Virus record (IMG/VR): IMGVR_UViG_3300013102_000804
Location: 1 to 44,328 of that record
Length of the DNA: 44,328 nucleotides
Source: a virus
Direction: 5' to 3' (one strand)
A program made the translations under genes and the position numbers. Shown here one piece after another: positions 7,950 to 38,283 of this stretch. Within the stretch, counting starts at the first letter, position 1. Each line of letters opens with the position of its first letter. The notes under the pieces were generated by a model that was not told the DNA's origin, made no database searches, and saw nothing but the letters and a program-made list of their open reading frames with translations.

Positions 7950-7978
7950 TTTAAACATCGCGTTTATTCGTAAGTCAA
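7950..7978 (-). promoter_or_regulatory. Putative PL promoter
   Basis: On the minus strand: -35 TTGACT (7978-7973), 17-nt spacer, -10 TTTAAA (7955-7950). It closely matches the PR promoter near cro in sequence and layout, and lies downstream of the cI-lprI terminator and upstream of the leftward operon. Predicted transcription start is near 7943. Confidence 0.75.
7952..7966. promoter_or_regulatory. Operator OL1
   Basis: TAAACATCGCGTTTA, a dyad with arms TAAAC and GTTTA, overlapping the spacer and -10 of PL. It shares the operator consensus found in three copies near cro. Confidence 0.75.
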
Positions 7979-7989
7979 CATGATGTTTA
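7975..7989. promoter_or_regulatory. Operator OL2
   Basis: TCAACATGATGTTTA, covering part of the PL -35. Its centre is 23 bp from that of OL1, exactly the spacing between OR2 and OR1. Confidence 0.7.
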
Positions 7990-8021: not shown

Positions 8022-8046
8022 AAAAAGCCCCGCCAGGGCGGGGCTT
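8022..8046 (-). terminator. Intrinsic terminator of the cI-lprI operon
   Basis: On the minus strand, AGCCCCGCC (8045-8037) pairs with GGCGGGGCT (8034-8026), followed by a run of T residues (8026-8022). It lies about 20 nt past the LprI-like stop and before PL, so it insulates repressor transcription from the early operon. Confidence 0.85.
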
Positions 8047-8066
8047 CATTTGGGGCTTGGGGGAAC

Positions 8067-8459
8067 TCACAAGGACCAGTAGTTCCCCAACTGGATCTTC
8101 CGGAGCACGGCATGGTGGATCATGCATTCCAGGTACTGGGAGGTGGCGCCGGATCCTGTGACCGCTGCCTGTTTCGTTTCGCAGTCTTGGGCCCGAAATG
8201 CTGTCCACGTGGCCTGGGCTTTCTTAAGGCGATTCGCGATTTCCGGTCTTGCCGTGTCACCTGCCATCTTCAGCTCTGCCGCGACCAGCGCGTCCTGCCG
8301 CACAAGTTCTTGGGACATGCAGTGACCTGTTTCAACTTGGTTGGTGGTTCCCCGAATGCACGCTCGAAACTCCGGAGTCAGATCATCCACGGCCTGCGCG
8401 TGGACGCATGCGGCACTGCTGGCGAGAGCTACTGCAACAAGCAATCTAGTGATGTTCAT
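8067..8459 (-). CDS. Secreted LprI/DUF1311-like protein (possible lysozyme inhibitor)
   Basis: 130-aa exported protein. A signal peptide (MNITRLLVAVALASSAAC, likely cut after VHA at residue 21) is followed by the DUF1311/LprI core: LKKAQATWTAFRAQDCE, then YLECMIHHAVLRKIQLGNY. The four mature cysteines Cys34, Cys47, Cys93 and Cys112 can form two disulfides. LprI of Mycobacterium inhibits lysozyme; most family members are uncharacterised. Its ribosome site AAGGA overlaps the repressor stop, and the gene ends before a terminator, so it should be made with the repressor in lysogens. This fits a lysogenic-conversion cargo gene acting in the periplasm. Confidence 0.8.
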   Translation of the reverse strand: MNITRLLVAVALASSAACVHAQAVDDLTPEFRACIRGTTNQVETGHCMSQELVRQDALVAAELKMAGDTARPEIANRLKKAQATWTAFRAQDCETKQAAVTGSGATSQYLECMIHHAVLRKIQLGNYWSL

Positions 8460-8467
8460 GGTCGTCC

Positions 8468-9157
8468 TTAGTTGAACCGCTCGATCCTGTTCCGCAGGTA
8501 CACCTTCCCGCCAATCAACGTGCCAGCTGGCAACGGAAAGGGATCGCCATAGCTCTTGTTGTCACTCGCTACGTGGATCACGCCGCGGTCGAGCAATCGC
8601 TTGATCTGCTGCCCATTGCCCATGTTGATCAGATAGATCCCGTCGCCGTCGAAGGCTGTGATTCCGGTATCGACCACCACGGCATCGCCAGGCTGGATCA
8701 CTGGCTGCATGGAATCGCCATTGCCCGTAATCAGCCTGAGTCGCCCTGGTGCTGGCACAAATCCGACGATGCTTCGGATGTACCCGGGTTCGAAATCGAT
8801 GGCCCGGATCACTTCCGGGTAGTCGACATTCTCCACTGCGTCGCCCATGCCTGCCTCCGCGTTCAGTTGCTGAACGCGAACATAGTCACGTTCCGTCGCA
8901 GAACCGGAGACGGGACCGGAGCCCCCGATAAGCATCGGGGCCTGCGCTTCGAGTATCCAGGTGGCGTTGATGCCCAGCATTTGCTGCGCTTTGTTGGCGC
9001 CCGCGGCGGAGACGCCCGTGGGGCGGCTTTCCCAGTTCTTAAGCGTCTGCGGCGACTGGCCCAACGCCCGAGCTACGGCTGACTGGCCGCGGATGGGCGA
9101 GTCGAGGTGAGCGGCAGCGGCGTAGAGCCGTTTCATCGAAGGGTGCATTTCAGCCAT
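8468..9157 (-). CDS. LexA-type phage repressor (CI-like, HTH plus S24 peptidase)
   Basis: 229-aa repressor that maintains lysogeny. The N-terminal helix-turn-helix covers about residues 24-60 (GQSAVARALGQSPQTLKNWE). The C-terminal S24 domain has nucleophile Ser149 in GNGDSMQP and general-base Lys186 in QQIKRLL. A likely self-cleavage site is Ala102-Gly103 (EAGMG), so RecA-stimulated autocleavage is expected. The start at 9157 is chosen because AGGA lies 9 nt upstream and it begins just after the operators; a longer in-frame reading to 9565 would cross OR and cro. Predicted binding sites are the TAAAC-N5-GTTTA dyads at PL and PR. Confidence 0.93.
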   Translation of the reverse strand: MAEMHPSMKRLYAAAAHLDSPIRGQSAVARALGQSPQTLKNWESRPTGVSAAGANKAQQMLGINATWILEAQAPMLIGGSGPVSGSATERDYVRVQQLNAEAGMGDAVENVDYPEVIRAIDFEPGYIRSIVGFVPAPGRLRLITGNGDSMQPVIQPGDAVVVDTGITAFDGDGIYLINMGNGQQIKRLLDRGVIHVASDNKSYGDPFPLPAGTLIGGKVYLRNRIERFN

Positions 9158-9175: not shown

Positions 9176-9190
9176 TAAACATGGCGTTGT
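9176..9190. promoter_or_regulatory. Operator OR3
   Basis: TAAACATGGCGTTGT, with a good left arm and degenerate right arm, located at the PRM -10 and start region. By position it would switch off repressor transcription when bound, as OR3 does in lambda. Confidence 0.65.
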
Positions 9191-9217
9191 TACACGCCAT
9201 GTTGACTGCGGAATAAA
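9189..9217 (-). promoter_or_regulatory. Putative PRM (repressor maintenance) promoter
   Basis: On the minus strand: -35 TTTATT (9217-9212), 17-nt spacer, -10 TGTAAC (9194-9189). Both boxes are poor matches, as expected for an activated maintenance promoter. Predicted start near 9182 leaves a leader of about 25 nt with the AGGA ribosome site of cI. Confidence 0.5.
9191..9205. promoter_or_regulatory. Operator OR2
   Basis: Reads TCAACATGGCGTGTA on the minus strand. It abuts OR3 and covers part of the PR -35, so bound repressor here would block PR and could activate PRM. Confidence 0.65.
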
Positions 9218-9230
9218 CATGGCGTTTAAT
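9202..9230 (+). promoter_or_regulatory. Putative PR promoter
   Basis: -35 TTGACT (9202-9207), 17-nt spacer, -10 TTTAAT (9225-9230), a strong consensus promoter for cro. The predicted start is at about 9237-9238, which coincides with the cro ATG. Confidence 0.8.
9214..9228. promoter_or_regulatory. Operator OR1
   Basis: TAAACATGGCGTTTA, the best match to the dyad consensus of the five sites. It covers the PR spacer and -10 and also the PRM -35. Confidence 0.75.
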
Positions 9231-9237
9231 CTGTGCC

Positions 9238-9471
9238 ATGAACCAGCCAACCACGACCATGCACAAGGATTCCGAGCTGATTGACCAGCTCGGTGGCCCC
9301 GCCGAAGTGGCCCGACGACTGGGCTTCGCCATGCCCAAGGGCACGCAGCGAGTACAGAACTGGAAGTACCGGGGCATCCCCCCATACACGCGAGTGACCC
9401 GAACCGACGTGTTCGGTCCGGCCCCGGTCGACATTGAGCAGCAGACCCCGGAAACCGGGGCTGCCGCCTGA
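9238..9471 (+). CDS. Cro-like antirepressor (YdaS/Cro HTH)
   Basis: 77-aa protein with a helix-turn-helix at about residues 14-45 (LIDQLGGPAEVARRLGF, then RVQNWKYRGIPP), typical of the short YdaS/Cro family that opposes the CI repressor. It faces away from the repressor gene across the OR operators. No Shine-Dalgarno is seen upstream, and the predicted PR start lies at the first base of the ATG, so the message may be leaderless. A downstream in-frame ATG (9259) exists but also lacks a convincing ribosome site. The 30-residue tail is Pro/Thr-rich. Confidence 0.88.
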   Translation: MNQPTTTMHKDSELIDQLGGPAEVARRLGFAMPKGTQRVQNWKYRGIPPYTRVTRTDVFGPAPVDIEQQTPETGAAA

Positions 9472-29024: not shown

Positions 29025-29503
29025 AGATCATCGCCGAGCTGGTGCCGGCAGAGGCCGGACACATCGACGCGATTGCAGCAGCCGCGCGGCCGGCGGACGT
29101 GGCCGAGTTGTGGGCTTGCGCCCGCACCAGCCCAGCCGAGGCCCTACACCGGGGCCTGGCCGGCAGCGCCGAGGCATGGACGGCCATGGTGGGAGGCGTG
29201 CCGGTGTGCATGTTTGGCGCCACGCCTTACTCGATCTTGGGCGGCATCGGCACGCCCTGGATGGTGGGCTCGACCGGTCTCAACCCGCTGGCCGTCCAGA
29301 AAGAGTTGCTGCGCCTCTCTCGACCGGCGCTGGCCCGTATGCAGCAGGCGTTCCCATCGATGTTGTTCAACGTTGCCGACCAGCGCAACGACGCCGCGCT
29401 GCGCTGGCTGAGCTGGCTCGGTTTCCGATTCCTGGCGCCGGTTCCTGTTGGGCCGGACAGCACCCCCTTCATACCGTTCTACTGGAGCGCTGATCATGTG
29501 TAA
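29021..29503 (+). CDS. Gp13-like internal virion protein (GNAT-like fold)
   Basis: 160 aa, similar to the T7 gp13/DUF2833 family: ELWACARTSPAEALHRGLAGS, AWTAMVGGVPVCMFGATPYSILGGIGTPWMVGS, and ADQRNDAALRWLSWLGFRF. The fold resembles GNAT acetyltransferases, but phage members are structural or assembly factors. ATGA overlap with the nozzle gene. Confidence 0.85.
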   Translation: MKIIAELVPAEAGHIDAIAAAARPADVAELWACARTSPAEALHRGLAGSAEAWTAMVGGVPVCMFGATPYSILGGIGTPWMVGSTGLNPLAVQKELLRLSRPALARMQQAFPSMLFNVADQRNDAALRWLSWLGFRFLAPVPVGPDSTPFIPFYWSADHV

Positions 29504-30053
29504 TCCCGCCATTGCCCTACTGGCCACGACGCTGGTCACAGGCGCGTATCAGGCCGATCAGCAGCGAAAGCAGGGCGAAGCCAATGCGCAGATCGCCGAG
29601 AACAACGCAACGCTCGCCCAGCAGGATGCCGACTCCAGCAATGCGCTGGCCACCCGCGAGATGGAACAGCAGGCGTGGCGCACGCGTGTTGCCATCGGCC
29701 AGCAGCGCGCCGCGATCGCCGCCAACAACATCGACCCGACGCTGGGCACGCCGGCGGAGATCCTGGGTGAAACCGCGATGTTCGGCGAGGTGGACCAGCA
29801 AACCATCCGCATGAACGCCGCACGCCAGGCCTGGGGTTTCAATGCGCAGGCGCAGAACCAGCGCACCCAGGCGGACCTTTCGCGCTGGAGCGGGAAGTCG
29901 CAGGCGACCGGCACCATTCTGGGCTCGCTGGCCAGTGCTGCCAGCGTGGGCATGGGTGGGATGGGAGGCATGCGCGGCGCCGGCAGGTCGGCTGTTGGCT
30001 CGCGGACAACCGGCACCATCAGTAGCGGCGGCTGGACTGGAGGCTACGCCTGA
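29496..30053 (+). CDS. Virion core protein (T7 gp14-like internal virion protein)
   Basis: 185 aa, MCNPAIALLATTLVTGAYQ with an N-terminal hydrophobic segment, then a long helical part (QRKQGEANAQIAENNATLAQ, RVAIGQQRAAIAANNIDPTLG) and a Gly-rich end (VGMGGMGGMRGAGRS). This is the typical pattern of gp14-type ejected proteins that form the outer-membrane channel. Confidence 0.85.
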   Translation: MCNPAIALLATTLVTGAYQADQQRKQGEANAQIAENNATLAQQDADSSNALATREMEQQAWRTRVAIGQQRAAIAANNIDPTLGTPAEILGETAMFGEVDQQTIRMNAARQAWGFNAQAQNQRTQADLSRWSGKSQATGTILGSLASAASVGMGGMGGMRGAGRSAVGSRTTGTISSGGWTGGYA

Positions 30054-32293
30054 TGGCTACCTTGATTCCGCGTACCAGCGGCCCGCAGGTACAGGCGCAG
30101 CTTGGCCCGCAGGTTCGCAACACTGCCCAGGTCGACCTGTCGCCCTCGATTCGGGCGGCCGGCCTGGTTGGCCAGTCTGCGTCCGATCTGTTCCAGCGGC
30201 AAAAGGACAGCGCGGACCTCACCGCAGTTATGGAAGCCCGGCGAGAACTGTCGGACTGGGAGGGCACCGCGTTCAATCCAGCCAATGCGGATGGCATTGC
30301 CAAGTACAAGGGCAAAGAATCGCTCAACGCACCCCCGGCACTGCTTGGTGACCTGGATCAGCGCGTTTCGGCCATCCGTGGTCGGCTGTCACCGAGCCAG
30401 CAGCAACGGTTCGACCAGGTCGCTTTCAGCTTCCGGGATTCTGTCCAGAACCGCCTCAACGGCTACGCCGACCGGGAGTACAGCATCTATGAGAGGGAGG
30501 AGCGCAAGGCGACCCTCGACAACATTGGCCAGGACGCTATCAATGCTGGCATGGCGGGCGACTTCGGGCTGTCCGACACACGACTGCAGGAGGCAATTGG
30601 CATCGCTACGGCCTCCGACCGCGCCCAAGGGCTGGGCCCCGAGGCCATCAAGGCCAGCGAGCGGGGCATTGTTTCATCGGCCCGCAAGCAGATTGCCGCG
30701 GGGCTTGCGACACGTGACCCTTTCGCGGCAGAGGACTACTACCACCGCTATGCGGACCAGATGACGCCGGAGGATCGGGCGCAGGTCGAGCGCACGCTGT
30801 ACCCGGTCGTGAAGGACCGCGCAGCCTACGAGCTGGCCAACTCCCTGGCCGACGGCCGTGGCGCCATCGAGCCGCTGCCGGCACCCACTGCACGTGGCAA
30901 GCCGTCCCCGGCCATCGCAAAGGCTATCGATGACGCAGCAAAGGCCGAGGGCCTGGACGCAGCCGGCCGCGCCGACCTGTACGCGCTGGCCGAGCAGGAA
31001 TCAGGGTTCCGTGCCGACGCAGTGAACCCGGAGGTTCTGGACGATGGTGACCAGGCTACCGGCCTGTTCCAGTACCGCTCCACCAGCGCCGGCGGCATCG
31101 ATCGCAAGGACGCTGCTGCATCGGCACGCCGTGCTGCGCGCGAGTACAAGGAACGGCTGGCAAAGGGTGGCCGTCAGTTCGCCATTGCCGCGCACTTCGC
31201 GGGTGAGGGCGGGGCCGACGCCGTGGTGAACAGAGGCCGGTCCGCCCAGAACCCGAAGACCGCGTTGTATGTGCGCCAGGTGCTGGGCCGTTCCGCACGT
31301 TGGGCGTCGGATGGCGGACAGGTTGTCGCTGCACCTGCACCGATTGCGGCTGCGGCGTCGGCGGTGCCGGCCACTCTGGCGGATGCGGTAGCGGCCATCC
31401 CGCGCACCATGGCGCCGGATCAGCGCGCTGCCACTGAGGGCTACCTGCGCGACATCTTCGCCCAGCGTAAAGACCGCATCGAGCAGGCCAAGAAGCAGGC
31501 CGCCATGGCGATCTACGACAAGGTGACTGCTGCCGGCGCGAGCGCACCGCTGTCGGCTGTGCTGGCGCCGGCCGAACTGGCGCTGGTGGGTCAGGATTCC
31601 AGCCTGAGCGAATCCATCAACCGCTACCGGAAGCTGATCGCCGAGGGCGGCGTGATCCAGGATGACCCGGCCACGCTGGACAGTCTGCAGCGGATGCAGG
31701 CCCTGACCCCGGCGCAGTTCGCTAAGGTTCCGCTCGGCCACTACGCCGACAAGCTGAGCGGCAAGACGTTGAAGTCGCTGGCCGATGACCAGACCAAGGC
31801 AAACGACCCCGCCAAGCGCGCGGACTGGATGACCGACAACGACCGGCTGGAGCGCGGGTTTCAAATGCTCGGCTTCGGCAAAGACACCGACATCACCGGC
31901 AGCGGATCCCAAGCCAAGAACGCTCCACGCGACAACCTGCGTGGTGAGTTCCGCATCGCCTACCAAAACGCGCAGACAGCGTTCGTGCAGAGCACGGGCA
32001 AGAAGCCGACCCCGGAGCAGGCCGACGTGCTGCTTTCGGCCACGGCCAAGCAGTTCGCCCAGAACCTGCAGGCCGGCCGCCTTGGTGCGGTGCAGGAGGA
32101 GGGCGGCAAGTTCAAGAACAACCCGAGGGTGAAGACCGGTCTCTACAGCAGCGCGGCGCAGTTCGACCTGCAGGTGAGCCAGGCCGACCGTGACGCCATT
32201 CGAGGCGCGTATGCCGATAAGTACGGCCGGCCGCCTACCGATGCTTGGGTTACGCAGTACCTCGCGCGCAAGAGCCAAGGAGCCAAGAAGTGA
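30053..32293 (+). CDS. Internal virion protein with lytic transglycosylase domain (gp15-like)
   Basis: 746 aa. The N-terminal 250 residues are helical (gp15-like; QVQAQLGPQVRNTAQVDLSPSIRAAG). Around residues 295-420 lies an SLT-type domain with catalytic Glu316 in LAEQESGF, then GLFQYRST and FAIAAHFAGEGGADAV. It would locally digest peptidoglycan during DNA ejection. In T7 this activity sits on gp16, so the domain is placed on a different core protein here. It starts in a TGATG overlap. Confidence 0.85.
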   Translation: MATLIPRTSGPQVQAQLGPQVRNTAQVDLSPSIRAAGLVGQSASDLFQRQKDSADLTAVMEARRELSDWEGTAFNPANADGIAKYKGKESLNAPPALLGDLDQRVSAIRGRLSPSQQQRFDQVAFSFRDSVQNRLNGYADREYSIYEREERKATLDNIGQDAINAGMAGDFGLSDTRLQEAIGIATASDRAQGLGPEAIKASERGIVSSARKQIAAGLATRDPFAAEDYYHRYADQMTPEDRAQVERTLYPVVKDRAAYELANSLADGRGAIEPLPAPTARGKPSPAIAKAIDDAAKAEGLDAAGRADLYALAEQESGFRADAVNPEVLDDGDQATGLFQYRSTSAGGIDRKDAAASARRAAREYKERLAKGGRQFAIAAHFAGEGGADAVVNRGRSAQNPKTALYVRQVLGRSARWASDGGQVVAAPAPIAAAASAVPATLADAVAAIPRTMAPDQRAATEGYLRDIFAQRKDRIEQAKKQAAMAIYDKVTAAGASAPLSAVLAPAELALVGQDSSLSESINRYRKLIAEGGVIQDDPATLDSLQRMQALTPAQFAKVPLGHYADKLSGKTLKSLADDQTKANDPAKRADWMTDNDRLERGFQMLGFGKDTDITGSGSQAKNAPRDNLRGEFRIAYQNAQTAFVQSTGKKPTPEQADVLLSATAKQFAQNLQAGRLGAVQEEGGKFKNNPRVKTGLYSSAAQFDLQVSQADRDAIRGAYADKYGRPPTDAWVTQYLARKSQGAKK

Positions 32294-35200
32294 TCGACAA
32301 CGTGCTGGAAGGCTTCGACGAGCTGTCGGACGAAATCGAGACTACCCGCCAGGTCACGCTGCGCAGCGCTTACACCGGCACCAGCCAGAAGCCGGAGGAA
32401 GCCGCGCGCGCGAACCGGCTGTCGGACCAGCTTGGCCAGCCGTTCGGTGTCGTCGCTGCGAACCTCGGTGACTACGAGCAGGATGCCCGCCGTCTGGAGA
32501 TCGACGAAGCGGGCCGGCAGTCCCCGCATGTCGGCGACTTCCTGGCCGACCCGCGGCGCATGGCCTTGGCCAGCGATGAGGCGCCGAAGCTGGCCACCTA
32601 TGCCAACGCGCTGGTGACCGGTGAGGCGCGCGCCACTGCCGAGCCGAACATCCTGGAACAGGTGATCGGCGGTGTGATCAGCGGTTGGCAACGCGGCAAG
32701 GCGAATGCGCTTTCGCTGCTGCCGGATGGACCGGCGGTGATGGACCCGGCCACGGGCCGACTGACCACGGACCGCTCGGCCGAGGAAGCTGCATTGCGCG
32801 CCGATCAGGAGCGCAAGGCCCAGGCTGCGGACGTGACCAGCGCCAGCACCGACCGTGGATTCCAGGCCTTCGACCGCGCGAACAAGGCCGGCAGCTTCGC
32901 TGGTGCTGCGCGCGAGCTGGCCAGCGGCGGCACAGACACGCTCGGCGCCATTGCCGTCACCCTGGGTCAGTCGATTGGCATGGGCGCCCCCGGTCTCGCG
33001 CTTACTGCATCTACTGGCGGCGGCAGCCGCGTCGTCACCGCAGCCTCGGCCGGTACCGGATCGGGCCTGACAGAGTTCGGCGCCAGCATCGCCGATGCCA
33101 TGCAGGACGCGAAGGTCGATCCCACCGACGCCTATGCAGTGGGTCAGTTCCTGCGCGACCCGCAGAAGATGGCCGCTGCGCGCGAGAAGGCAGCAAAGCG
33201 CGGCGTGGCCATCGGCGTGTTCGACGCGCTGACGGCCGGCGTGGCCGGTCATTTCATCAACAACGCCCGACGCAGTGCATCCTCGGCCGTCCTGCGCACC
33301 GGCGCCGAGGCTGGCGTGCAGCTGGCGGGCGGCGCTGCCGGCGAGGCAACGGCGCAGCTGCTGACCGAGGAACGCCTGAAGTGGGGCGACATCATCATGG
33401 AAGGCCTGGCCGAGGTGCCGACCGGCGCGGTCGAGGTCCACGCCAACTATCGTGCGGCGAAAGCGTCTGGCCAGGTGCGTTGGATCAACGAGCGCCTGGG
33501 CCAGGTGATGGACTCCGGGGACGCGAACGAGCGCCTGCGCGCCGCCACCGAATTGGCCGCCGACCTGAAGCTCGGCGAGCGATCGCCGGAGGACATGAAA
33601 GCGCTGACCGCGCAGGTGGCCGGCGAAGACGCGCGGGTGTATCTGGACGCGGAGCAGGCGCAGACGCTGTTCCAGTCCGCGCCGCAGGTGTTGCAGAACA
33701 TGGTGGGCGGCGAGTCGGCGCTGGCGGAGCAACTGGCCACCGGCCAGGTCGTGATCCCGATGGCCGAGTGGATGGCTGCCGTGCCGCGCTTGCCGAATCG
33801 GGACGAGATCCTGCGCAACGCCCGAACCACGGCAGAGGGCTTGTCGCCAGCAGAACTGGAGACGCTGGACATCGATGCCATGGCGCGCGAGTTGGGCGTG
33901 CCGCTCGATGCGCCCGCGCCGGATGCTGCTGCGGCAAGCGCCCGCGCGCAGGTGCAGCAGTCGGTAATGGCCCAGCTGGTCGGTACCGATCGCTACACGC
34001 CCGCGCAGGCGGAGAGCCAGGCGCAGCTGTGGGGCGCGATGTTCGGCCGGCTGGGCGAGGTGACTGGCCAGGATCCGGTGGCGCTGTACGAGCGCTACGC
34101 GGCGGGCATTGAGGCGGCAGAAGCACCTGCCGAGGGCGCGGAAGCGCAGCCGCGCACGCTGATGCAGAGGGGCATGGACGCGCTGCGCAGCCTGTTCGGC
34201 CGACCGCAGGTGGCCATAGATGGCCGCGGCCAGCAGACCATCGAGCGCGAGGGCAGCGCCTATGTGCAGCGGGCCGGGCAGTGGCTGCTGGCAGACGAGC
34301 AGGGCCAGGCCCGCGACTTCCTGACGCTCGACCAGGCGCGAATCGAAGCCGAGCGCATTGGGGGCGAGATCGTGCAGGACGATCCGATCGAAGGCCAGCG
34401 GCAGACCTGGAGCGTCGCACTGCCCGATACCGCCGCGCGCGAGGTGCTGGCCGGCGACATCTTGTTCCAAGGCGGAGCAGCCCCGCGCGGTCAGATCCAG
34501 ATCGGGCCGGACCGGGCCATGCAGATCAGCCTGTTCAAGGGCGCGGACCTGTCGACGTTCCTGCACGAATCCGGGCATTTCTTCCTAGAGGTGTACCGGG
34601 ACGTGGCCACGGCCGAAGATGCCGCGCCGCAGTTGCGGTCCGACCTCGACGCCCTGCTGAAGTGGTTCGGCGTCGAGTCGGCGGACCAGATCGGCGTCGA
34701 CCAGCACGAACAGTTCGCCCGCGGCTTCGAGGCCTATCTGGGCGAGGGCAAGGCGCCGACGCCTGAGCTGCAGTCGGTGTTCAGCCAGTTCAAGCAGTGG
34801 ATCCTCGGCATCTACCGCAGCCTGCAGAATCTGGACGTCGAGCTGACCGACGAAGTGCGCGGTGTCTTCGACCGCATGCTGGCCAGCCAGGAGGAGATCG
34901 AGGCGGCGCAGGCGCGTGTCGGGTTCGAGCCCATTGCGCGGGACTTGGCTGAAGCGCAGGCGCTGGGCATGACCGAGCGCCAGTTCGCCGACTACCAGGC
35001 GCAGGTCGCCGCAGCACGCGAGCAGGCTGAGGCTGACCTGATGGCACAGCTGCAGGAAGCCGATGCACGCGCCCGGGAACGCTGGTGGAAGGACGAGCTG
35101 GGCACCATTCGCAGCGAGGTCGAGGCTGAAGTCGAGGCCACGCCGATCGTGCGCGCCTACCGTGTTCTGACCGGACGGAAGGAGGCCGGCGGCGAGCCCG

Positions 35201-38200
35201 TGCCGGAGCAGCTGCAGGGTATGAAGCTGGACCGTGCAGTGCTGGCAGCCACCTACGGTGATGGGCTCCTGGACAAGATGGGCCGGGTGTACGCGAGGAA
35301 GGGCGGCACGCACCCCGACGAGGCAGCGGCGCTGCTGGGCTTCAGTTCTGGCGACGAGCTGGTGCAGGGCCTGTGGACCGTGCGCCAGACCCTGGCAGGT
35401 GTGGGCGCCGAGGCTGATGCCCGCATGCAGGCCCGGCATGGTGAGCCGATGACCGACGGAACCTTGCCGCAGCGGGCGCTGGATGCGGTCCACGGCAGCC
35501 GCAAGATCCAGCTGCTGGAACGAGAGCTGGGTGTGCTGGCGGACCTGGCGCGTGAGCCGCGGCCGAACCGGCGCGAGTTGAAGGCAGTGGCCGAGGCGGT
35601 TCTATCCAGGAAGACGGCGCGCCAGATCCGTCCGAACGAGTATCTGGTCGCCGAACGCAAGGCGGCGCGCGCGGCGGCACAGGCAGCGACGAAAGGCCGG
35701 TACGGCGAGGCGCTGCAGGCGAAGCGGCAGCAGGCTTTGAACGCGGTGCTCTTCGCTGAGGCCCGGGCGGTGCAGCAGGAGGTCGAGTCCACGGTCGGTT
35801 TCATTCGCCGGCAGATGACGCCGAAGGCGCGCGAGCGGCTGGGCAAGGCAGGCGCCGACTACCTGGAGGCCATGGACACCATCGCCGACACCTACGAGTT
35901 CCGCGACGTTTCCGGCCGCACGGTGGCCCGCCGGCAGAGCCTGCGGCAATGGGTGGAAGCACGGCAGGCCGAGGATGACCTGACCGCGATCAGTGACGCA
36001 CTGCTGGCCAGGGTGGAAGCGGAGAACGTGACCAACTACGCCGATCTGCCGATCACCGAGTTCCGCGAGCTGCACGACGCGGTGACCAACATCGCGCGCT
36101 TGGCCAAGCTGAAGAACCAGCTGCTGGGCAACAAGGATCAACGCGATTGGGAGAGCGCGCAGGCGGAGCTGGCCGGCGCAATCCGTGGCGCGATCGCGGA
36201 AGGTAAGCCGTTGCCCCTGTCCGATGCAGACCTGACCGCGATGCAGAAAGTGGGTGCGACCTACACCGGCCTGATGGACTGGGTGCTTCGCCCGGAGACC
36301 GTTGTGGAATGGCTGGATGGCGGCGAGACGGGGCCGTGGCATGACTTCCTCTGGAACCAGGCAGAGGCCGCCCAGCAGCAGCGGATCGAGCTGCGCAATC
36401 GCGTCGGCGGAATGCTGGAGCAGACCATGAAGGCGCTGACGCCGGCGCAGCGGGCGGACCTGAATCGCCTGGTGTACGTGCCCAGCCTCGGCCGGTCGCT
36501 GTCCAAGAACACCATCGTGGCGATGGCGCTCAACCTCGGCAACGCCGGTAACCGCGACAAACTGATGCGTGGCGGGTTCATTGGCAAGAACGCCGAGGTG
36601 GTCCAGTTCACCCCGCAGAACATCGCGGAAATGTTGGGCCACCTCACCACGGCCGACGCGCAGATGGTGCAGGGCATCTGGGATGCGATGAACAGCCTGT
36701 GGCCGGACATCGTGGAGCAGCAGCGCCGGCTTTCCGGTGTTGCGCCGGAGCAGGTCGAGCCGATGCCGCTGGTCTTCACCGCTGCCGATGGCTCGATGGT
36801 CAGCCTGCGCGGCGGTTACTACCCCGCGGTGTACGACCCCCGTGCCGGTGCTGGCGGCGTCAAGCAGGCGCGCGCGGCGGAGGAACAGATCATGGGCGGC
36901 ACCTTCAGCCGTGCCATGACCAGCAAGGGGCACACGAAAGAACGCACCGAGTACGCGGCGCCGATGCTGCTGGACTACCACCGCGTGCTGTCGAGACACC
37001 TCAATGACGTGATCACTGACGTGTCGCACCGCGGCTACGTGAAGCAGGCGCTGCGTGTGCTGGAGGACCAGGAACTGAAGAACCTGATCCAGCAGCGGCT
37101 GTCGGAGGGGGCATATCACGCGCTTTACGGCAGCGTGAAGAATGCTGTGCGCGGCGCGTCCGTTTCCGAGCCCGGTTCCAGCATGGCCGAGAAGATCGGC
37201 GATGCTGTGCTGACCAACACCGCTGTGGCCGCGCTGGGCTTCCGCCTGCCACTGGTGTTCGCCAACACCGTGGTGGCGCCCATCCAGGCGGCTGCCCGTG
37301 TCGATCCCGGGCACATGCTGAAAGGCTACCTGGCCTATTACAAGAATCCGGCGCGAATGACCGAAATGATTCACGCGTTGTCCCCCTTCATGGAGGAACG
37401 CGCCAACTCGCTGGATTCGTCCTACCAGGTGGTGCTGGGCAAGCTGTCGGGGAAGCGCGGCATCCGCGCGGCGGCGATGAAGATGGCCATGGAGGTCCAT
37501 CGTTGGACGGTGCCGCTGGCCGAACGCGCCATCTGGTTGGGTCGATACCAGCAGGCGCAGGCTCAGGGCGCCGGCATCGACGAGGCCGTTCGCCTGGCCG
37601 ACAAGTCGATTCGAACCACGCAGCAGGCCGGTGCACCTAAGGATCTCAGTGCCGCCGAGCGTGACCCCCGGTACAAGTGGGTCCGCATGTTCATCGGCCC
37701 GATGATCATCATGAACAACCGTTTGCAGGAATCCGGCTTGCGCGGCCTGTACTTGGGGCGTGTGCAGTCGCCGGCGCGCGCCCTTGGCACCTGGTTGTCG
37801 GCCGGTGTCCTGTCCAACGCGGTTTTCGAGCTGCTGATGATGCGCGGACCAGACGGTGGCGACGACGACGAAAAGGGTCTGGACGACTGGAGCACCTGGC
37901 TCGCGCGGAAGACCCTGCTCTTCCCGTTCCAGACTATCCCGCTGCTGCGTGACGTTGCCGGCGGCATCGACGCGGCGATCGAGGGCAAGCCGAGCATGGG
38001 CCGACCCAACCCGATCGTGGACGCCGGTGTCGCGCTGGCAAAGTTCGGCCAGGCCGCGTGGAAGGAGGGCAGGGACTGGGTTGCCGACGACGACGAGCCG
38101 GATGCGGAGAAGCTGATCAAGACCGGCGTGCGCGCTGCTGGTCCGCTGACCGGCATCCCCAGCAACCAGATGCTGACCACCGGCGAGTACCTGTACGACG

Positions 38201-38283
38201 TGGGCACTGGCCAGTACACCCCCGACAACCCAGCGGAGGCGGCGGCGTACCTGATGTACCGCCGACCCAAGGACGAGCAGTAA
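32290..38283 (+). CDS. Giant internal virion/ejection protein (gp16-like, about 1,997 aa) with HExxH motif
   Basis: Very long, largely helical protein. GTG 32290 (VIDNVLEGFDELSDE) is chosen because AAGGAG precedes it and it overlaps the previous stop by 4 nt. A Gly/Ser/Ala-rich hydrophobic region occupies about residues 200-370. At residues 759-763 is HESGH in FLHESGHFFLEVY, an HExxH zinc-peptidase signature. Long coiled stretches follow (residues 880-1350). The C-terminal 500 residues resemble the large polyvalent protein domain 38 type found at the end of giant phage ejection proteins. It would be ejected to span the periplasm; the protease activity is inferred from the motif. Confidence 0.85.
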   Translation: MIDNVLEGFDELSDEIETTRQVTLRSAYTGTSQKPEEAARANRLSDQLGQPFGVVAANLGDYEQDARRLEIDEAGRQSPHVGDFLADPRRMALASDEAPKLATYANALVTGEARATAEPNILEQVIGGVISGWQRGKANALSLLPDGPAVMDPATGRLTTDRSAEEAALRADQERKAQAADVTSASTDRGFQAFDRANKAGSFAGAARELASGGTDTLGAIAVTLGQSIGMGAPGLALTASTGGGSRVVTAASAGTGSGLTEFGASIADAMQDAKVDPTDAYAVGQFLRDPQKMAAAREKAAKRGVAIGVFDALTAGVAGHFINNARRSASSAVLRTGAEAGVQLAGGAAGEATAQLLTEERLKWGDIIMEGLAEVPTGAVEVHANYRAAKASGQVRWINERLGQVMDSGDANERLRAATELAADLKLGERSPEDMKALTAQVAGEDARVYLDAEQAQTLFQSAPQVLQNMVGGESALAEQLATGQVVIPMAEWMAAVPRLPNRDEILRNARTTAEGLSPAELETLDIDAMARELGVPLDAPAPDAAAASARAQVQQSVMAQLVGTDRYTPAQAESQAQLWGAMFGRLGEVTGQDPVALYERYAAGIEAAEAPAEGAEAQPRTLMQRGMDALRSLFGRPQVAIDGRGQQTIEREGSAYVQRAGQWLLADEQGQARDFLTLDQARIEAERIGGEIVQDDPIEGQRQTWSVALPDTAAREVLAGDILFQGGAAPRGQIQIGPDRAMQISLFKGADLSTFLHESGHFFLEVYRDVATAEDAAPQLRSDLDALLKWFGVESADQIGVDQHEQFARGFEAYLGEGKAPTPELQSVFSQFKQWILGIYRSLQNLDVELTDEVRGVFDRMLASQEEIEAAQARVGFEPIARDLAEAQALGMTERQFADYQAQVAAAREQAEADLMAQLQEADARARERWWKDELGTIRSEVEAEVEATPIVRAYRVLTGRKEAGGEPVPEQLQGMKLDRAVLAATYGDGLLDKMGRVYARKGGTHPDEAAALLGFSSGDELVQGLWTVRQTLAGVGAEADARMQARHGEPMTDGTLPQRALDAVHGSRKIQLLERELGVLADLAREPRPNRRELKAVAEAVLSRKTARQIRPNEYLVAERKAARAAAQAATKGRYGEALQAKRQQALNAVLFAEARAVQQEVESTVGFIRRQMTPKARERLGKAGADYLEAMDTIADTYEFRDVSGRTVARRQSLRQWVEARQAEDDLTAISDALLARVEAENVTNYADLPITEFRELHDAVTNIARLAKLKNQLLGNKDQRDWESAQAELAGAIRGAIAEGKPLPLSDADLTAMQKVGATYTGLMDWVLRPETVVEWLDGGETGPWHDFLWNQAEAAQQQRIELRNRVGGMLEQTMKALTPAQRADLNRLVYVPSLGRSLSKNTIVAMALNLGNAGNRDKLMRGGFIGKNAEVVQFTPQNIAEMLGHLTTADAQMVQGIWDAMNSLWPDIVEQQRRLSGVAPEQVEPMPLVFTAADGSMVSLRGGYYPAVYDPRAGAGGVKQARAAEEQIMGGTFSRAMTSKGHTKERTEYAAPMLLDYHRVLSRHLNDVITDVSHRGYVKQALRVLEDQELKNLIQQRLSEGAYHALYGSVKNAVRGASVSEPGSSMAEKIGDAVLTNTAVAALGFRLPLVFANTVVAPIQAAARVDPGHMLKGYLAYYKNPARMTEMIHALSPFMEERANSLDSSYQVVLGKLSGKRGIRAAAMKMAMEVHRWTVPLAERAIWLGRYQQAQAQGAGIDEAVRLADKSIRTTQQAGAPKDLSAAERDPRYKWVRMFIGPMIIMNNRLQESGLRGLYLGRVQSPARALGTWLSAGVLSNAVFELLMMRGPDGGDDDEKGLDDWSTWLARKTLLFPFQTIPLLRDVAGGIDAAIEGKPSMGRPNPIVDAGVALAKFGQAAWKEGRDWVADDDEPDAEKLIKTGVRAAGPLTGIPSNQMLTTGEYLYDVGTGQYTPDNPAEAAAYLMYRRPKDEQ

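What the first reader, a model, noticed from the sequence alone, without database searches (positions are those of the whole stretch)
8067..8470. Secreted LprI-like protein wired into the repressor operon
The gene is 8 nt after cI, its ribosome site overlaps the cI stop, and a terminator follows, so it should be made in the lysogen. LprI/DUF1311 proteins include lysozyme inhibitors. This phage's own virion carries a peptidoglycan-cutting SLT domain (30053-32293). A lysogen-expressed periplasmic inhibitor could block the virion muralytic step of related incoming phages or protect the host from lysozyme. This is a testable superinfection-exclusion idea, not shown by sequence.
Basis: inference. 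Interest (0 to 1): 0.65.

Follow-up and report, generated by a model that had tools for sequence, protein, structure and literature searches.

The report
Prophage periplasmic cell-wall-enzyme inhibitor candidate
A phage that lives in Stenotrophomonas bacteria makes, together with the repressor that keeps it dormant, a small exported protein of a family that in these bacteria sits beside injected cell-wall-cutting toxins as their likely antidote, so it probably shields the carrier cell from an incoming phage or a rival bacterium.

Summary
Gene 8067-8459(-) lies 8 nt after the CI gene, its Shine-Dalgarno overlaps the CI stop, a strong terminator follows, and its product has a signal peptide and passes the LprI/DUF1311 (PF07007) cut-off. 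Three points go beyond it.

(1) The gene sits between cI and a second pair of CI operators, the position of lambda rexAB. In relatives with the same operators this slot holds unrelated genes or is empty. Most slot families look exported or membrane-bound (16 of 21, against 21 of 190 control families).

(2) The predicted fold matches DUF1311 structures and, less certainly, TsiV3, the T6SS immunity protein that inhibits a spike-borne peptidoglycan hydrolase.

(3) In Stenotrophomonas chromosomes LprI genes often abut XVIPCD killing-T4SS effectors, some bearing that same VgrG3-like hydrolase domain. One PF07007 protein in Salmonella was shown to act as such an immunity protein.

Most likely biochemistry: inhibition of an injected cell-wall hydrolase. 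The same SLT virion also pairs with other slot genes, so LprI is not an obligate partner of the phage's own SLT. 'Lysozyme inhibitor' is weakly supported.

The parts
8067..8459 (-). lprI-like gene, 130 aa, PF07007; predicted signal peptide residues 1-23 (8391-8459), mature four-Cys helical domain (8070-8390)
8468..9157 (-). CI-like repressor, HTH plus S24 domain, 229 aa
8465..8469 (-). Shine-Dalgarno AAGGA overlapping the cI stop codon; 8-nt cI-lprI gap
8024..8047 (-). intrinsic terminator after lprI (10-bp stem, T-run)
7950..7989 (-). left operator pair (7952-7966, 7975-7989) overlapping a pL-like promoter TTGACT-N17-TTTAAA (7950-7978)
   Evidence: operator scan: five sites of at least 12/15 in the whole window, about 0.4 expected by chance; promoter by inspection
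9176..9230 (+). right operators (9176-9190, 9191-9205, 9214-9228) and pR-like promoter TTGACT-N17-TTTAAT (9202-9230)
   Evidence: promoter by inspection
9238..9471 (+). cro-position gene, phage DNA-binding protein family phrog_8008
30053..32293 (+). internal-virion-type protein with an SLT transglycosylase motif (domain about 30977-31240); possible target type, not a demonstrated partner
29448..30053 (+). internal virion protein (phrog_418) preceding the SLT protein; supports placing the SLT in the virion

Best explanation
The gene is the cargo of the phage's rex-position slot: transcribed with cI in the lysogen, exported to the periplasm, folded as a helical LprI/DUF1311 domain with cysteines suited to disulfides, and working as a binding inhibitor of a peptidoglycan-cutting enzyme injected from outside. 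I lean to superinfection exclusion: it neutralises the cell-wall enzyme that an incoming phage of another immunity type uses to cross the peptidoglycan. Shown here: gene, operon layout, operators, slot variability, purifying selection, family and predicted fold. Inferred: expression, export, binding, target.
For: It lies between oR and oL after cI, with SD overlap and terminator. In all 12 alleles with the same operators and either a co-oriented cargo gene or an empty slot, the oL pair follows directly; L045 is the empty slot, with terminator and oL intact. Slot families are enriched for exported/membrane proteins, 16/21 against 21/190, Fisher p=4e-10. Known exclusion genes occupy lysogeny modules (Ltp, PMC3952083). 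T4 Spackle is a periplasmic helical inhibitor of a virion lysozyme (PMC7677548). Fold: 3gi7 DUF1311 Z 11.8; TsiV3 (4nsr) Z 10.5 at rmsd 2.0 over 86 residues. LprI genes abut injected peptidoglycan-targeting effectors in 8 of 18 Stenotrophomonas regions. PF07007 protein SED_RS06230 protects against a co-encoded transglycosylase/LysM effector (PMC8867033). dN/dS 0.04-0.16.
Against: The same SLT virion protein pairs with three different slot genes. No experiment on this protein or on any phage LprI. The characterised PF07007 proteins act on bacterial effectors or regulate the cell's own enzymes, not on phage virions. Helical-bundle fold matches below Z 13 can be chance, and Foldseek alone gave E of 0.07 or worse. 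LprI is rare among phages: no hit in 50,697 phage records.
Confidence: 0.36

Rival explanations
1. Orphan immunity protein (lysogenic conversion): the prophage gives its host a periplasmic antidote against peptidoglycan hydrolases injected by competitors through killing T4SS (XVIPCD effectors) or T6SS.
For: In the host genus LprI-domain genes sit 16-71 nt upstream of XVIPCD effectors on the same strand in several ortholog groups. The effectors carry PG_binding and, in one group, VgrG3-like_C domains; VgrG3 is what TsiV3 inhibits (PMC4832377). S. maltophilia and Xanthomonas duel by T4SS (PMC6759196). The lysogen Sm46PAILV has no other PF07007 gene in the family search. The nearest homolog (41%) lies between attC-like sites, so these genes move as lone cassettes.
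Against: The phage gene has no adjacent effector. Other slot families show no homolog beside XVIPCD effectors. Phage LprI is only 29-34% identical to the LprI proteins in those regions.
Confidence: 0.27
2. Modulator of the host's own cell-wall enzymes (ScwA-like), changing the lysogen's peptidoglycan turnover or delaying lysis.
For: Salmonella ScwA, a periplasmic LprI-domain protein, controls levels of the transglycosylase MltD and does not affect lysozyme sensitivity (PMC7933661).
Against: ScwA is larger and has another architecture; nothing in the window points to an endogenous target.
Confidence: 0.14
3. Inhibitor of animal, plant or amoebal lysozyme that protects the lysogen in a host.
For: Family name; M. 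tuberculosis LprI inhibits lysozyme (cited).
Against: In M. tuberculosis LprI a separate MliC domain is said to suffice; none was found here. ScwA gave no lysozyme resistance.
Confidence: 0.07
4. Envelope protein excluding phages by another route, such as masking a receptor or blocking DNA entry, with no peptidoglycan enzyme involved.
For: Most other slot occupants are lipoproteins or membrane proteins, typical of such exclusion genes.
Against: LprI homologs here are linked to peptidoglycan-targeting effectors, not receptors.
Confidence: 0.11

Closest known systems
Lambda rexAB slot (immunity region between cI and oL)
   Same: Cargo co-oriented with cI, between cI and the left operators, so on with the repressor
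   Different: Unrelated protein, predicted periplasmic; slot content is highly varied among close relatives (comparison with lambda from general knowledge)
Ltp of S. thermophilus phage TP-J34
   Same: Lysogeny-module gene for a small exported exclusion protein, made in the lysogen
   Different: Ltp is a lipoprotein of another family, targets the tape measure protein, Gram-positive host
T4 Spackle (Sp)
   Same: Small periplasmic helical disulfide protein; inhibits a virion cell-wall enzyme, as in the working model
   Different: Not found as a relative by any search run here; expressed in lytic infection; target gp5 lysozyme demonstrated there
TsiV3 (V. cholerae immunity protein to VgrG3)
   Same: Predicted fold aligns over 86-88 residues at rmsd 2.0; antidote to an injected peptidoglycan hydrolase
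   Different: 8% identity, paired with its effector gene; phage gene is alone
PF07007/DUF1311 proteins ScwA, SED_RS06230 and 3gi7
   Same: Same Pfam family and, for 3gi7, same fold
   Different: Chromosomal, different architectures and partners; none in a phage lysogeny operon

Membership tests
LprI/DUF1311 (PF07007) | HMM score over curated cut-off | tested here: met
   41.4 bits against 22
LprI/DUF1311 (PF07007) | Export signal and conserved cysteines | tested here: met
   signal peptide by inspection; C34 and C47 invariant, C93 and C112 in most of the alignment
LprI/DUF1311 (PF07007) | DUF1311 fold | tested here: met
   pLDDT 88 model; 3gi7 Z 11.8 rmsd 1.9, Foldseek prob 1.00
Lysozyme inhibitor | Inhibits lysozyme | not testable with these tools
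   no MliC domain found; family member ScwA negative
TsiV3-type immunity protein to injected peptidoglycan hydrolase | TsiV3-like fold | tested here: inconclusive
   Z 10.5 against next unrelated 8.1, but helical bundles under Z 13 can match by chance
TsiV3-type immunity protein to injected peptidoglycan hydrolase | Gene paired with its effector | tested here: not met
   neighbours are cI and the leftward early operon; several chromosomal LprI genes do pair
Rex-position cargo gene | Between cI and oL, same strand as cI, own SD, terminator | tested here: met
Rex-position cargo gene | Transcribed in the lysogen | not testable with these tools
   needs RNA-seq
Lysogeny-module superinfection-exclusion protein (Ltp, Sie type) | Blocks entry of other phages | not testable with these tools
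Lysogeny-module superinfection-exclusion lipoprotein (Ltp type) | Lipoprotein anchor | tested here: inconclusive
   weak SAAC lipobox-like site, better AQA/V type I site; Cys18 absent from the nearest homolog
T4 Spackle | Spackle fold | tested here: inconclusive
   not among the listed structure matches, which excludes nothing
Known anti-phage defence system | PADLOC model match | tested here: not met
   no hit for LprI or seven other slot proteins

The most novel reading that the evidence does not exclude
Temperate phages of Stenotrophomonas and relatives keep a fast-changing rex-position slot of exported proteins made with the repressor. In this lineage the slot has captured an antidote family from the bacterial T4SS/T6SS arms race, so that one protein neutralises injected cell-wall hydrolases whether they come from a phage virion or a rival bacterium.
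Probability: 0.18. Interest if true: 0.8.

Novelty: new variant of a known kind. Interest (0 to 1): 0.58.

Why it matters
It ties two arms races together: superinfection exclusion by phages and contact-dependent killing by bacteria both involve injected cell-wall hydrolases, and the same antidote fold could serve both. It also gives a defined, easily cloned place (the gene after cI) in which to look for exclusion genes in Stenotrophomonas phages, which matters for phage work against a drug-resistant opportunist. For the LprI family it points to a concrete function, antidote to injected hydrolases, that fits better than its 'lysozyme inhibitor' label.

Tried and rejected
Specific LprI-SLT pairing: rejected as a rule because the same SLT virion protein occurs with other slot genes. 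All slot genes as T4SS immunity proteins: no homolog of any other slot family in 49 XVIPCD or LprI loci, LprI alone matched. LprI as common phage cargo: none in GenBank phages; the three marine IMG/VR hits match only the first 42 residues and gave no LprI HMM hit; wider viral scans found only the known relative. L049 slot protein as a distant LprI: no HMM support. LprI next to XVIPCD in L195: taken as coincidental, since the same aroQ-accBC operon gene lacks an effector in L196-L198. SLT fold by single-sequence AlphaFold: pLDDT 44, unusable; no PDB sequence hit. Viral structure library: no match. The LprI lysozyme paper (PMC4742756) and the Pantoea T6SS paper (PMC9796082) are not held.

Full report
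What is there. The gene is 8067-8459 on the minus strand, 130 codons, 8 nt after the stop of a CI-type repressor (8468-9157). The sequence TAAGGACGACCATG puts the Shine-Dalgarno over the cI stop. A 10-bp GC-rich hairpin with a T-run ends the unit at 8024-8047. The protein has a signal peptide (by inspection) and a mature domain with four cysteines, and passes the PF07007 LprI cut-off (41.4 bits against 22). It is a real gene under selection: three related phages keep it in the same place, with 11-13 synonymous and 2-3 non-synonymous differences from the window copy (dN/dS 0.04-0.08; 0.16 between the other two). The host is Stenotrophomonas: the closest relatives are a prophage of S. maltophilia Sm46PAILV (L006) and an IMG/VR prophage (L002). 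The window record itself is an unnamed virus record.

Where it sits. A 15-mer operator TAAACATGGCGTTTA occurs five times (at least 12/15) in the whole 44-kb window: three copies between cI and the divergent cro-position gene (9176-9228) and two just beyond the lprI terminator (7952-7989); about 0.4 are expected by chance. Both sets overlap TTGACT-N17-TTTAA(T/A) promoters (inspection). The gene therefore lies between cI and oL/pL, the position of rexAB in lambda, and should be on when CI is made. That expression is inferred, not shown.

The slot. I collected relatives of this CI from viral contigs and Stenotrophomonas genomes and read the gene after cI in each. The LprI gene occurs in three. 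Others hold a 5-TM protein, a zinc-ribbon plus TM protein, a YecR-like lipoprotein, a TM-PDZ protein, a DUF3251 lipoprotein and several other lipoproteins or signal-peptide proteins (families). In phages with near-identical operators the oL pair follows the cargo. L045 has no cargo at all: oL lies 78 nt after the cI stop, with its own terminator, an empty slot. L044 and L047 have no co-oriented cargo gene. With one simple predictor applied to slot and non-slot ORF families, 16 of 21 slot families and 21 of 190 control families look exported or membrane-bound (Fisher p=4e-10). Caveats: a hydropathy rule, a crude gene caller, and a few slot ORFs that are probably not genes. In other Lysobacteraceae genomes the slot is again often a lipoprotein or secreted protein, once a protein that looks HARE-HTH-like.

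What the protein is. An AlphaFold model from 27 family members has mean pLDDT 88. It matches the DUF1311 crystal structure 3gi7 (Foldseek prob 1.00; Z 11.8, rmsd 1.9) and 6ar7 (Z 12.6), then 4nsr/4nso (Z 10.5/10.4, rmsd 2.0, 86-88 residues, 8% identity). The next unrelated structure has Z 8.1. 4NSR is listed as a structure of the VgrG3-TsiV3 pair of V. cholerae, in which TsiV3 is the antidote to a spike-borne peptidoglycan hydrolase (PMC4832377); 4NSO carries a matching title. Helical bundles can reach such Z by chance, so alone this would be suggestive only.

The genomic test. I fetched 19 chromosomal regions around LprI-domain genes of Stenotrophomonas; one had been chosen for its nearness to an XVIPCD hit and is set aside. 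In 8 of the other 18 the LprI gene directly abuts an XVIPCD effector of the bacteria-killing T4SS; in the five where I measured it, the LprI gene lies 16-71 nt upstream on the same strand. They form about three ortholog groups among roughly eleven; a rough chance model gives P about 7e-4 for groups and 3e-10 for loci. The effectors scanned carry peptidoglycan-binding domains. In one group the toxic domain is PF21277, T6SS_VgrG3-like_C (E about 1e-70), named after the spike domain that TsiV3 inhibits. Fold and gene neighbourhood thus agree independently. Published work also fits: SED_RS06230, a PF07007 protein of Salmonella Dublin, protects against a co-encoded effector with transglycosylase and LysM domains (PMC8867033), and DUF1311/LprI is listed among T6SS immunity domains (PMC12135965). 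By contrast the 'lysozyme inhibitor' label rests on M. tuberculosis LprI, whose separate MliC domain is said to suffice, and ScwA has no effect on lysozyme sensitivity (PMC7933661).

The virion enzyme. The 30053-32293 protein lies after an internal virion protein (phrog_418) in a podovirus-type structural block. Pfam SLT is just under cut-off, but the motif AEQESGF...GLFQ...HFAG is invariant in five homologs. Phage CP2 carries a homolog directly after two internal virion protein genes. It is plausibly injected. The same virion protein (78-87%) is found in phages whose slot holds LprI, a 5-TM protein or a TM protein, so LprI is not its fixed partner. Phages sharing CI and operators are already blocked by CI; any exclusion must concern phages of other immunity.

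How it most likely works. A lysogen-made periplasmic protein that binds and blocks an injected peptidoglycan hydrolase: I put this biochemistry at about 0.6, divided between superinfection exclusion (0.36) and antidote to rivals' T4SS/T6SS effectors (0.27). The first is favoured by the slot's position and company. The second is favoured by the family's gene neighbours in the host genus and by the prophage gene being the only PF07007 match in Sm46PAILV. No sequence analysis run here separates the two; the deletion and in-vitro tests named under next steps would.

Known or new. Lysogeny-operon exclusion genes (lambda rexAB from general knowledge; Ltp, PMC3952083) and periplasmic inhibitors of virion enzymes (T4 Spackle, PMC7677548) are known kinds. 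An LprI/TsiV3-like protein in a rex position, and this slot in Stenotrophomonas phages, I did not find described in the papers searched.

Noticed in passing
L041, L042, L050, L083, L053, L059, L062, L065, L087, L089-L099 directly after cI: The gene after cI is highly variable and mostly exported or membrane-bound (5-TM, Zn-ribbon plus TM or TM2, YecR-like, TM-PDZ, DUF3251 and other lipoproteins): a reservoir of candidate exclusion or lysogenic-conversion genes.
   Followed up: partly
L045, 0-110 nt after the cI stop: Empty-slot allele: cI stop, terminator and oL with no cargo gene.
   Followed up: yes
L199, L200, L205-L208, L211-L213: Chromosomal LprI-domain genes abut XVIPCD T4SS effectors, several with a VgrG3-like_C hydrolase domain; this suggests LprI proteins as immunity proteins and hydrolase activity for effectors of that type, several of which the 2019 S. 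maltophilia study left without a function.
   Followed up: partly
L120:1423-1925: The nearest LprI homolog (41%) lies between attC-like sites (GTTAGGC / GCCTAAC), apparently an integron gene cassette.
   Followed up: partly
genome G001 (S. maltophilia Sm46PAILV): The prophage gene is the only PF07007 match, and the genome has only 3 XVIPCD matches where many relatives have 10-16.
   Followed up: no
window 32245-38283: About 2000-aa protein (phrog_9880) with an LPD22 large-polyvalent-protein domain downstream of the SLT protein.
   Followed up: no
G002:C1:31371-33854: The SLT protein of the L002 phage aligns in two pieces with about 280 nt between query residues 424 and 437 in one open frame, an apparent insertion.
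   Followed up: no
L153 (after cI): Slot gene encodes a protein without export signal that looks HARE-HTH-like, one of the few non-envelope occupants (by inspection only).
   Followed up: no
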